Assembly (NCBI RefSeq): GCF_014133895.1
Contig: NC_050730.1
Coordinates: 62,001-126,000, forward strand
DNA length: 64,000 bases
From: Torulaspora globosa
Lineage: Eukaryota; Ascomycota; Saccharomycetes; Saccharomycetales; Saccharomycetaceae
Reading direction: 5' to 3'
Shown piece by piece: positions 39,645 to 42,808 of this stretch. Position 1 is the stretch's first letter. Each line of letters opens with the position of its first letter. A program made the position numbers and the translations under genes. Under the pieces are notes generated by a model, which did not search any database, was not told the DNA's origin, and saw only the letters and a list, made by a program, of their open reading frames with translations.

Positions 39645-41390
39645 CTAAGAAACTATCATGCTTTGACCCTTTCTTGGCCCCCGTATCTCATCATACTTGA
39701 GTATTCCCTTACACCTACCACATATTAGCCCGCTAACTGTGATACCATCTGGAGAGACTCCTAGTTCTTCGCCTCTTAATTTGGCTTTCTTTATTTCTCG
39801 CGCTTCTGGTACATATTTGCAATTCAAGCACCTGTAACCGCTAAATTTATAGCGGCCATAGCATCTGCCGCAAATACGGTGATTGCCAGACCAGTCTTTG
39901 TAGAAATATCGTACGCCCTTGCGTGGGCAGGCAATGCAATGTTTGAGACATTTGGTTGTCGTAAATTTTGGTTGTTCCTTGATACAATGCTCGCCACAAG
40001 CATGTACTGTGAGCTTATTCTCCAAGACAATATTTTTACCAGATTCTGTGGTGATTCCGTAGACTACTTGCTGGCCACATTTTTCTTCGCTGAATCCGAA
40101 ATAAATGGGTTCTCTTTTGACTTCATCGGGAGCTGGCCTTCTCTTGTGACCACTGCGACAATAGGATAGAACATTTTGCAGTGGCGAACGTCCAGCAATG
40201 TGACAATCGTAAGTGAAATGGCAATTTACCTTGCGACCTTCAATGGTCTCCGTTCTTGCCGATCTGGTAGTTACTGTTGTAGCGATTCCTAAAGAGCGAG
40301 AAACATGCACAATTCCATTCATGATGGATGGATATATGGTCTGGATCGAAACTTTATAAGCATCCGGTCCCTCATTACGTTTGACGACGTAGCCATCTGA
40401 GTCGATAAGCCCTGCCAAAAAAGCTTCACGAATCTGGATGTCTTCAGACCACATGAACGAAGGGACCTGCTTCTCACCATCCAGATCTCTCTTGAATTTT
40501 AGATTAAGAACAACATTCCAGAACGGATTCTCTTTCCTCAGATTCCGATTTCTACGGTTGCCATCTGCCTTTTCGCCGAAATATAATCTGGTGTGCTTAG
40601 CTCTTAAAGGAACCTGTTCGTCCTTGTAGGTTGGATATAACCCCCAAGCTCTACATCTCTCAGTGAGGCCTTTCATGAGCTCAGTGTCAAAACTGTCGAC
40701 ACTAATTTCAGGTTCCTTAGTGGTACCGTCGCCAAGCCAAAGTCCAAGAAGCCATGCCATGTCGAGCACATACGGAGTAATAAGATGTTTCTGCCCCGTC
40801 AAAAACTCCGACAGGACACCTCTGCCAGTCAATATAGGTCCGAACCGTAGAAATGAATTGACGCGAATATGAGCTTCTAACAGATCCAGATCTCGGACTT
40901 GTATACTGAACTCCAGATAAAGTCCGTGTTCCTCTTCCTTTTGTGCCATGAAAGCTCTCGCAAGCATCTCACCTTCTGGGGTCATGGGAAAGTCCTTGTG
41001 ATGTGTTTTTGGCAGGTTTATTATCCGACCGTCTGGGGTCAATTGTTCCTCCATAGTTTTCCACTTAACCTTATAATTGTTCCTCTTGAAAGAGTTCTCA
41101 AGCGTCGGTTTGGCTGACGTCCTCAAAGGCAGCCTGTGAGCCACAGTGCATTTAAATCCCAGTCTGTGATATATCTGTTTCCTCAAGGGATCAGTCCGAC
41201 CAGCCTCTCCCTCGTTTGCTCTATGCTTAGTCTTTTGCAGGAGCTGATAAGTCATCTGTTCATCCTTCGATATCGAAGTAATACGATCTACTGTCCCGTC
41301 TGCACATAAAACCATCGAATTAGTTGTGATATGTTGGATTGGCTTCGCTTGGCCATCAGCCATCAGTATTTTGGTACCTTGCTCGAACAT
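39645..41390 (-). CDS. HO: HO mating-type switching endonuclease
   Basis: The 581-residue protein starts at the first in-frame ATG, 41390 (MFEQGTKILMADGQAKPI). HO cuts the MAT locus to start mating-type switching. It is a domesticated relative of the VMA1 intein. The two LAGLIDADG motifs are WLLGLWLGDGTT (213-224, Asp221) and FLAGLIDSDGYVV (324-336, Asp330/Asp332). The intein-type block B CTVAHRL (TxxH) is kept. The HO-specific C-terminal zinc finger has Cys pairs from residue 465 to 560 (CLKHCIAC, CGRCYGRY, CLNCKYVPEAREIKKAK, CGRC). No frameshift or missing catalytic residue is visible, so the gene appears intact. It lies convergent with SSB, matching YDL227C. Confidence 0.98.
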   Translation of the reverse strand: MFEQGTKILMADGQAKPIQHITTNSMVLCADGTVDRITSISKDEQMTYQLLQKTKHRANEGEAGRTDPLRKQIYHRLGFKCTVAHRLPLRTSAKPTLENSFKRNNYKVKWKTMEEQLTPDGRIINLPKTHHKDFPMTPEGEMLARAFMAQKEEEHGLYLEFSIQVRDLDLLEAHIRVNSFLRFGPILTGRGVLSEFLTGQKHLITPYVLDMAWLLGLWLGDGTTKEPEISVDSFDTELMKGLTERCRAWGLYPTYKDEQVPLRAKHTRLYFGEKADGNRRNRNLRKENPFWNVVLNLKFKRDLDGEKQVPSFMWSEDIQIREAFLAGLIDSDGYVVKRNEGPDAYKVSIQTIYPSIMNGIVHVSRSLGIATTVTTRSARTETIEGRKVNCHFTYDCHIAGRSPLQNVLSYCRSGHKRRPAPDEVKREPIYFGFSEEKCGQQVVYGITTESGKNIVLENKLTVHACGEHCIKEQPKFTTTKCLKHCIACPRKGVRYFYKDWSGNHRICGRCYGRYKFSGYRCLNCKYVPEAREIKKAKLRGEELGVSPDGITVSGLICGRCKGILKYDEIRGPRKGQSMIVS

Positions 41391-42808
41391 GCCGCAATCG
41401 ACAATGCTCTCTCCCGGAGGAAGAGACGGGACAGATCGGAAAGCATGCAAATATTTAGGCAGTCTTGATCAGCTTTAATAGCAGTTAAGGCCGCAACTCG
41501 TCCTCCACATCAATCGCCATCTTTCAAACGCCATTACAGTTGACTGGATCGTGGTCGCTACAATTAGGCGCCAACGCCATCGATTTGGCGTCCCAACTCG
41601 CTAAAGATCAGGCTCGTCACCACTACCTTCAATAAATATAGTTCCTCTTTAGTATATTCAACATCCACCGTAAATCAATTTCAGGATCTTCGACCTAAAA
41701 GATAGGCATCCTGATGTCGCCGGAAAAAGAAATACGCCACGTTAAGCTCCATGCCTCAAAGCTGTCGTGGAATTAAGATGCCAACTTGGGTGAAATTACT
41801 CCGGTCGAAATCTCTTCTTTCCTGGCGAGCAAGATTTTTCACGTCCCAGGTGTCAGTAAATGATGCGGTGTTGGAAAACGCGATTGCGAGGCGTGGGGTA
41901 GATCTGCAGCGTGCCAAATATCCATAAGGCTTCTCTTTGGCTTTAAGATTTTTTTTTCCATATTTTATTAATTACTGTCATCTCGGTGTCAGCGATCGCG
42001 AAATACCGTTTTCCAATTGGTGATCCCGAACAAGTTTATAATATTGCCCCCCAGTTCTTATTCATCAACCCGCCAGATGAGCCTTGACATAACCTGCCTA
42101 GCGGTCGTCCACGATTTTCCTTACTTGATTCGTAGCCCCTGTCATTGGTTGGGGTTATGACTACGTTTTTCGACACGCTCTGACGCCAAATGAGGTTCGG
42201 AGCTGCAAGAATGTTGGATTATCGTTGACCGGATAATGCTGTGAGTCGGTTGCCTTCGTTTTTGCCTGGCAGTTCGGCATTTATTTTCCTCATTTGAGCC
42301 TCCCTGCAGCTCCCTGGACGCTCCTTATTCAATACGTAACAATTGATTGAAGATAGTAAATCTCGAGAGATGCCTGTCCTGTCGTGTAGTCTAGACGGGT
42401 GTATCAGACAGAAGAAGCGGACTGGCGGTCGGCTTAGATAGTGTGTCGGACGTAATCTTGGATTTTAACCCTTCTGGGACACCTAACACAAGCAGACTGC
42501 TTATCGAGCAGATCTGTCGGCAAACATACAGCCGACACATATGCGGCCGACGCAGGAGTCTCCTGCATAGCTCAAGCCCATGTTTCCCGCTCGTATCTGA
42601 GTGTTCTGCCTGGGATGTTTGTTTGCCAAGCCATGCCAAGCCATGCCAAGCCACGATGCGCTGACGCGCTATGACGCAGATCGAAAGGAAACAAAGAAGA
42701 ACTACGTCAGACCAAGTATTAAAGGCAACTGGCGTGAAAGCTTTCGCTGAAGCCTCTGCTGCTCTTCGATTGCCTGAGATCGTCGAAGATATCTGAAAAT
42801 ACAAGCAC
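41391..42808. promoter_or_regulatory. Long HO upstream region
   Basis: This 1.42 kb stretch between HO (minus) and a small plus-strand gene is the largest intergenic interval in the window and holds no supported gene. Near the HO end are one SBF-type CGCGAAA (41997-42003), an MCB-like AACGCGA (41878) and an AT-rich stretch with T9 (about 41949). Toward the far end are a palindrome (42552-42566) and a 10-bp tandem repeat (42625-42654). S. cerevisiae HO has a similarly long URS1/URS2 regulatory region, so the length itself is meaningful. Confidence 0.6.
42625..42654. repeat. 10-bp tandem repeat, three copies
   Basis: GCCAAGCCAT occurs at 42625-42634 and 42635-42644, and GCCAAGCCAC at 42645-42654. 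It sits in the HO / small-gene intergenic region. Confidence 0.85.

What the first reader, a model, noticed from the sequence alone, without database searches (positions are those of the whole stretch)
39645..41390. HO retains intein junction chemistry residues at its C-terminal block
After the YGITTESGKNIVLENKL stretch, the protein reads TVHACGEHC. The VMA1 intein ends VVVHN followed by the host sequence CGERG. Thus this HO keeps the penultimate His (463) and the +1 Cys-Gly-Glu, with the splicing Asn replaced by Ala (464), while Met replaces the intein's Cys1. S. cerevisiae HO reads EVKSC at this point, so this HO looks closer to the ancestral intein and may even preserve the first residues of the old host exon.
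Basis: partly seen in the sequence, partly recalled or inferred. Interest (0 to 1): 0.75.

Follow-up and report, generated by a model that had tools for sequence, protein, structure and literature searches.

The report
Yeast HO keeps an intein scar
The mating-type switching enzyme HO of this Torulaspora yeast still carries the disarmed cutting-and-joining site of the self-splicing element it came from, perhaps with the first residues of that element's old host protein, which helps show how a selfish gene was tamed.

Summary
The minus-strand ORF 41390..39645 is a 581-aa HO endonuclease of Torulaspora globosa reading ...LTVHACGEHC..., with Met at position 1. Sequence and fold alignment to PI-SceI put M1 on Cys1, H463 on His453, A464 on Asn454 and C465 on the +1 Cys. 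A tree built without the junction joins HO and WHO (100/97) and favours nesting them in Saccharomycetaceae VMA1 inteins, but VMA1-intein monophyly is not rejected (p-AU 0.073). The block is a disarmed splice junction, not special to this species: +1 Cys and block-B His in 33 of 33 HOs, penultimate His in 12, splicing Asn in 1. The +1 Cys is clearly inherited. For His and for Gly/Glu at +2/+3 retention is plausible, not proven: two-state parsimony even prefers regain of His. Nothing beyond +3 resembles VMA1. WHO proteins keep the other flank: Gly at -1 in 20 of 25, often Phe-Ile/Leu-Gly where VMA1 has Tyr-Val-Gly. This qualifies the published statement that HO and WHO lack motif G and exteins. 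Ancestral reconstruction was not available.

The parts
39645..41390 (-). HO endonuclease ORF, 581 aa (intein-like Hint + LAGLIDADG domains, C-terminal zinc-finger domain)
41388..41390 (-). Met1 start codon, at the position of intein Cys1
   Evidence: 31 of 33 HO have Met in this column, the other 2 have a gap there (models P0011 and P0033 start later); model residue 1 = PI-SceI residue 1
41136..41138 (-). His85 = block-B His of inteins (PI-SceI His79)
   Evidence: 33 of 33 HO, 91 of 91 VMA1 inteins, 0 of 30 WHO (Gln in 28)
40725..40754 (-). LAGLIDADG motif 1 (WLLGLWLGDG, Asp221)
   Evidence: Asp221 in 33 of 33 HO
40389..40418 (-). LAGLIDADG motif 2 (LAGLIDSDGY, Asp330, Asp332)
   Evidence: both Asp in 33 of 33 HO
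39999..40106 (-). C-terminal Hint blocks F and G, residues 429-464
   Evidence: strands 429-448, 454-456, 460-462 in the model; end residue 464 = PI-SceI 454
40002..40004 (-). His463 = penultimate His (PI-SceI His453)
   Evidence: 12 of 33 HO, 90 of 91 VMA1, 0 of 30 WHO (rows listed)
39999..40001 (-). Ala464 in place of the splicing Asn (PI-SceI Asn454)
   Evidence: Asn in 1 of 33 HO (P0028); fold alignment
39996..39998 (-). Cys465 = +1 nucleophile / first C-extein residue
   Evidence: 33 of 33 HO; 465 = 455 in 1ef0
39990..39995 (-). Gly466-Glu467, possible VMA1 +2/+3 (extein or homing-site) residues
   Evidence: G 13 of 33, E/D 16 of 33 HO; Cys-Gly-[ED] elsewhere in HO 2 of 588 Cys
39984..39986 (-). 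Cys469, partner of Cys465 in a CX3C (CX4C in P0025, P0029, P0030, P0031) pair
   Evidence: 33 of 33 HO
39711..39938 (-). zinc-finger domain, Cys485/488/507/510 and Cys521/524/557/560
   Evidence: these Cys in 32-33 of 33 HO and 28-30 of 30 WHO

Best explanation
The block is the C-terminal splice junction (block G plus the +1 position, possibly +2/+3) of a VMA1 (VDE) intein from which HO descends, disarmed so that the zinc finger stays attached. Mechanism: in an active intein, cyclization of the terminal Asn cuts the chain before the +1 Cys. In HO that Cys is followed by the zinc-finger domain, which holds residues essential for cutting MAT, so a working Asn would separate it. Asn has therefore been replaced (Ala here) and Cys1 has become the start Met. 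The now harmless penultimate His is free to vary. The +1 Cys and block-B His are kept in every HO examined, so they probably have a new structural job: with Cys469 the old nucleophile forms an invariant Cys pair, possibly a metal or packing site at the Hint/zinc-finger seam. Gly466-Glu467 are probably VMA1 flank residues, carried along or present in a look-alike target. Shown: residue equivalence, conservation pattern, HO+WHO kinship. Inferred: selective reason, new role of Cys465, retention of His, source of Gly-Glu.
For: Residue equivalence by sequence and by fold (1lws 1-464 = 1-454; 1ef0 1-465 = 1-455). Careful tree without junction columns: HO 100/100, WHO 100/100, HO+WHO 100/97, HO+WHO with S. 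cerevisiae-type and T. globosa VMA1 inteins 95/83, plus the Eremothecium intein 99/97. Conservation: Asn in 1 of 33 HO, +1 Cys 33 of 33, block-B His 33 of 33, penultimate His 12 of 33; the +1 Cys needs 1 change over the 88-row tree. Cys469 33 of 33 with variable spacing. Zinc requirement of HO and essential zinc-finger residues are stated in PMC7282813 (section 4, read). Mutation of the terminal Asn abolishes C-terminal cleavage (PMC4031507, passages).
Against: No ancestral reconstruction. Two-state parsimony prefers loss of His before HO and three regains (7 changes) to retention (10 or 11 by hand count on the printed tree). Gly and Glu/Asp need 8 and 7 changes among 29 HO rows, so they are labile. 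VMA1 inteins as one clade with HO+WHO outside are not rejected (p-AU 0.0732, lnL difference 22). Nothing beyond +3 resembles VMA1. No coordinates were available to test a metal site. VMA1 rows were chosen by a pattern that already demands Cys1, Asn and CGERG, so their invariance at those positions is partly built in.
Confidence: 0.72

Rival explanations
1. [quoted passage not shown] 2020).
For: Published mis-homing model (PMC7282813, section 13). The matching flank residues on both sides (-3..-1 in WHO, +1..+3 in HO) sit next to the insertion point; that they lie inside the endonuclease recognition sequence is recalled. Similarity stops at +3.
Against: No zinc-finger gene with this sequence was looked for here. 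A chance target would have to give Cys-Gly-Glu in frame.
Confidence: 0.35
2. Convergence: only the +1 Cys was kept (as a zinc ligand). Penultimate His was lost early and regained in some HO, and Gly-Glu-His arose as ordinary loop residues of a Cys-X3-Cys knuckle; the likeness of these residues to VMA1 is accidental.
For: Cys465 and Cys469 are both invariant in 33 HO; His, +2 and +3 vary. Two-state parsimony for His is lower with loss and regain (7 changes; 10 or 11 for retention by hand count). Background chance of G then E/D is about 0.9%.
Against: Three regains of the one catalytic residue at a site where non-His rows hold ten different residues. Gly and Glu/Asp recur in distant HO clades (for example P0032 CGD; P0012, P0014 and P0017 CGS; P0020 and P0023 CTE). 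Cys-Gly-[ED] is rare at other HO cysteines (2 of 588).
Confidence: 0.3
3. The block is a functional auto-processing site: HO still cleaves itself at the junction.
For: His463, Cys465 and block-B His85 are present.
Against: Asn is replaced in 32 of 33 HO (and alignment) and Cys1 by Met in 31 of the 31 rows that have the N-terminus; mutation of the terminal Asn blocks C-terminal cleavage (PMC4031507, passages).
Confidence: 0.02

Closest known systems
VDE / PI-SceI intein of VMA1
   Different: Cys1 is Met, Asn454 is Ala, no VMA1 exteins apart from possible +1..+3, a C-terminal zinc finger instead
HO endonuclease of S. cerevisiae and relatives
   Same: ortholog: HO clade 100/100; neighbours protein-tyrosine phosphatase, Hsp70, RIO2-like, RTT106-like, ArfGap (likeness to the S. 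cerevisiae HO locus is recalled)
   Different: junction reads TVHACGEHC instead of EVKSCRGCC
WHO elements (Coughlan et al. 2020)
   Same: intein-like domain + zinc finger; sister clade of HO; this genome has three intact WHO genes, WHO10 by the account of PMC7282813
   Different: WHO lost block-B His (Gln in 28 of 30), His453 and +1 Cys (0 of 30 each), but most keep Gly at -1 (20 of 25) and have Gly in place of Cys1 (23 of 30)
PI-SceI miniprecursor 1EF0
   Same: identical VHACGE string
   Different: a construct of the true intein; this HO carries the same Asn-to-Ala state naturally

Membership tests
HO endonuclease | falls in the HO clade | tested here: met
   29 of 29 HO rows one clade, 100/100
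HO endonuclease | Hint + LAGLIDADG domain with both catalytic Asp | tested here: met
HO endonuclease | C-terminal zinc-finger Cys pairs | tested here: met
   Cys485/488/507/510/521/524/557/560
HO endonuclease | free-standing ORF beginning at the intein Cys1 position | tested here: met
HO endonuclease | cuts MAT at Y/Z | not testable with these tools
   needs an assay
active (splicing) intein | nucleophile Cys/Ser at position 1 | tested here: not met
   Met1
active (splicing) intein | terminal Asn | tested here: not met
   Ala464
active (splicing) intein | +1 nucleophile | tested here: met
   Cys465
active (splicing) intein | block-B His and penultimate His | tested here: met
   His85, His463
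WHO element | falls in the WHO clade | tested here: not met
   20 of 20 WHO rows one clade, without this protein, 100/100
WHO element | lies beside FBA1 or a fragment of it | not tested
   8 neighbouring ORFs show no aldolase domain; the rest of the window was not scanned

The most novel reading that the evidence does not exclude
The last common ancestor of HO and WHO was still a splicing intein, with a zinc-finger protein as its C-extein and a short N-extein, both flanks matching the VMA1 site. Splicing was then lost separately in the two lines by different mutations: HO lost the N-side (Cys1 to Met, no N-extein) and the Asn but kept block-B His, His453, Cys+1 and CG[E/D]; WHO changed Cys1 to Gly and lost His, Cys+1 and block-B His but kept the N-side F-I/L-G (VMA1 Y-V-G), and one WHO lineage (P0042, P0046) still has Asn. 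Of the five splicing residues followed here, all but Cys1 are present in at least one descendant.
Probability: 0.27. Interest if true: 0.6.

Novelty: new member of a known kind. Interest (0 to 1): 0.4.

Why it matters
How a selfish intein became a free-standing, domesticated mating-type enzyme is the open step in the accepted HO story. The key paper states that HO and WHO lack intein motif G and have no exteins. If much of motif G and 1-3 extein residues survive in HO of the Torulaspora group, and the N-side flank survives in WHO, the junction becomes a fossil that can be used to place the loss of splicing and to tell extein carry-over from mis-homing. It also predicts a testable new role for the old splicing nucleophile and a simple experiment: put Asn in and see whether HO cuts off its own zinc finger.

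Tried and rejected
IQ-TREE with bootstraps on 113 rows timed out; replaced by FastTree and by treekit on 88 rows. Similarity of HO 468-485 to the VMA1 C-extein beyond +3: none. A residual N-extein in the HO 5' leader: the in-frame leader before the ATG reads ...SIVDCG and the modelled N-extensions of other HO (P0002, P0003, P0004, P0006, P0009, P0030) share nothing evident in the alignment, so I treat the final Gly as chance. Alternative alignment of WHO in which its Cys (HO column 462, 18 of 30) is the +1 Cys after a deletion: not favoured, because the WHO10 model puts T515 on Asn454 and A516 on +1. Zinc site with the PI-SceI Glu80 position: that column is not conserved in HO (Glu in 8 of 33, Arg here). 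Self-cleavage of HO: rejected (no Asn, no Cys1). The zinc finger was not folded alone; in the fold searches no listed row went beyond residue 469 of the HO model, so nothing is said on its fold.

By a two-state count that is not so (7 changes against 10 or 11); the report now says this and the odds were lowered.

Full report
What is there. The minus-strand ORF 41390..39645 codes for a 581-aa HO endonuclease. The window belongs to Torulaspora globosa: contigs C1, C2 and C3 of the held genome have exactly the lengths (1735737, 1315948, 1234107) of the contigs that carry three T. globosa HG536 proteins, and the 614-aa WHO ORF of C1 is one of them. Among 8 neighbouring ORFs scanned, Pfam finds a protein-tyrosine phosphatase, an Hsp70, RIO2-like, RTT106-like and ArfGap proteins, as expected for the HO locus (gene order of S. 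cerevisiae recalled).

The observation. Residues 458-469 read NKLTVHACGEHC. The VMA1 intein of the same genome ends ANQLVVHN and is followed by CGERGNEM. The alignment is exact at the catalytic positions by sequence and by fold: the AlphaFold model (33-sequence alignment, mean pLDDT 88.3; 94 and 90 in blocks 451-460 and 461-470) aligns with PI-SceI structures as 1-464 = 1-454, with 1ef0 as 1-465 = 1-455, and with the extein-bearing 1jva as 1-468 = 284-741. So Met1 sits on Cys1, His463 on His453, Ala464 on Asn454, Cys465 on the +1 Cys. The 1EF0 construct has the same VHACGE string.

Is it inherited? I used 33 HO (P0001-P0033; P0034, a fragment, and P0035, a hybrid gene model, left out), 30 WHO (fragments P0049, P0256, P0257 left out) and 107 VMA1 inteins that passed a junction pattern out of 116 proteins tried, thinned to 91. 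The pattern demands Cys1, Asn and CGERG, so VMA1 invariance there is partly by construction; its 91 of 91 block-B His is not. The careful tree (88 rows: 29 HO, 20 WHO, 38 VMA1, 1 kinase intein; 434 columns, junction left out; near-copies and short rows dropped) gives HO 100/100, WHO 100/100, HO+WHO 100/97, and places HO+WHO with Saccharomycetaceae VMA1 inteins (95/83; with Eremothecium 99/97), rooted on an intein in a protein kinase. Holding VMA1 inteins together costs 22 lnL units but is not rejected (p-AU 0.0732). FastTree on 113 rows also has HO+WHO at 0.997.

Pattern of keeping and losing. Over 33 HO: Met at position 1 in 31, a gap in 2; block-B His 33; penultimate His 12; terminal Asn 1 (P0028); +1 Cys 33; +2 Gly 13; +3 Glu or Asp 16; Cys469 33. 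Over 30 WHO: block-B His 0 (Gln 28), penultimate His 0, Asn 2 (P0042, P0046), +1 Cys 0. On the 88-row tree the +1 Cys needs 1 change, His 7 (5 within HO), +2 Gly 12 (8), +3 Glu/Asp 9 (7). His-bearing HO rows lie in three places: 8 of the 10 rows of the clade with the window protein, P0014 with P0016, and P0022.

Retained or regained? The +1 Cys is plainly retained. For His the evidence is mixed. VMA1 inteins have it in 37 of 38 rows. A yes/no count reaches its minimum of 7 with loss before HO and three regains; keeping His at the base of HO costs 10 or 11 by my hand count on the printed tree. But the non-His HO rows hold ten different residues, so they are not one state, and three returns to the one catalytic residue are a special demand.

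Old host residues. The +1 Cys is the position of the first extein residue. Gly-Glu is plausible VMA1 flank: Cys-Gly-[Glu/Asp] follows 8 of 33 junction Cys but 2 of 588 other HO Cys, and the residues recur in distant HO clades. Rows are related, so these counts are no probability. From +4 on there is no likeness.

The other flank, in WHO. Of 25 WHO with at least five residues up to position 1, 20 have Gly at -1, 16 of these with a hydrophobic residue at -2; Phe stands at -3 in 11. VMA1 has Tyr-Val-Gly (Tyr 91, Val 89, Gly 91 of 91, but chosen by a pattern on these residues); residues further upstream are not shared. The WHO10 model (P0040, mean pLDDT 77.1) aligns 10-515 with PI-SceI 1-454 and residue 8 with VMA1 residue 282, so Gly10 replaces Cys1 and Ile8-Gly9 stand on Val-Gly of the N-extein; in two T. 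globosa WHO genes that Gly is GGT, one base from TGT. WHO thus keeps the N-side and HO the C-side of what looks like the same VMA1 site. Against this: five of the 25 lack the Gly (P0244-P0248), and five further WHO rows have no usable N-terminus (P0042, P0046, P0239, P0242, P0251).

How it probably works. HO is an intein whose cutting residues have been removed because the chain after the junction is now its own zinc finger. PMC7282813 (section 4, read whole) states that HO does not splice, that residues essential for cleavage lie in the zinc finger too, and that zinc is required. The terminal Asn is what breaks the chain at that point (PMC4031507, passages). The old nucleophile is kept with Cys469 and may hold metal; zinc bound at the terminal Asn and a catalytic cysteine is described for the Prp8 intein (PMC6805012, abstract and passages). 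That the 1EF0 structure itself has zinc at the junction is recalled. This part is inference.

Against the literature. Coughlan et al. 2020 (PMC7282813; sections 4, 6, 11, 13 read) write that HO and WHO have no exteins and lack motif G, and propose mis-homing of VDE into a zinc-finger gene. In HO of the Torulaspora group much of motif G is present. A 2014 paper on Zygosaccharomyces sapae (PMC4065246; section 17 read, passages) already labels relic Hint motifs including G in an HO alignment, so the idea of a splicing relic is not new. Six literature searches showed me no statement on retained +1..+3 residues in HO or a VMA1-like N-flank in WHO; for all but PMC7282813, PMC7282806, PMC4065246, PMC6805012 and PMC4031507 I saw listings only, and subscription papers are mostly not held.

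Noticed in passing
WHO proteins (in this genome L004 1186..3054, L003 1237..3081, L005 1444..3321): Short N-terminal stretch ending Phe-Ile/Leu-Gly-Gly, matching the VMA1 N-extein Tyr-Val-Gly plus a Cys1-to-Gly change.
   Followed up: yes
residues Cys390, Cys396, His266 of HO (ORF 41390..39645): Kept in 33, 32 and 33 of 33 HO, while Cys390 and Cys396 are Cys in only 4 and 3 of 30 WHO and none of the three is among the commonest residues of VMA1 inteins there; with Cys465/Cys469 they may mark an HO-specific metal or structural site.
   Followed up: no
P0208 (740 aa): A VDE-like intein inside a Ser/Thr protein kinase (LSG|CFERGT ... VICHN|CHPFDGDS), i.e. a VDE relative at a non-VMA1 site; used as outgroup.
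   Followed up: partly
own genome, among others C1:942124, C7:160599 and 162343, C2:1263699: Besides HO, the VMA1 intein and three intact WHO genes, nine further Hom_end_hint matches, two under the cut-off; L006 and L007, the two looked at, are broken WHO copies in pieces.
   Followed up: partly
HO_P0028: The one HO of 33 with Asn at the old splicing position, without His before it or Cys1; the similar P0027 has Thr.
   Followed up: no
window 41391..41450 (minus strand): The HO leader is open in frame before the ATG and ends in a Gly codon (...SIVDCG|MFEQGT); probably chance.
   Followed up: partly
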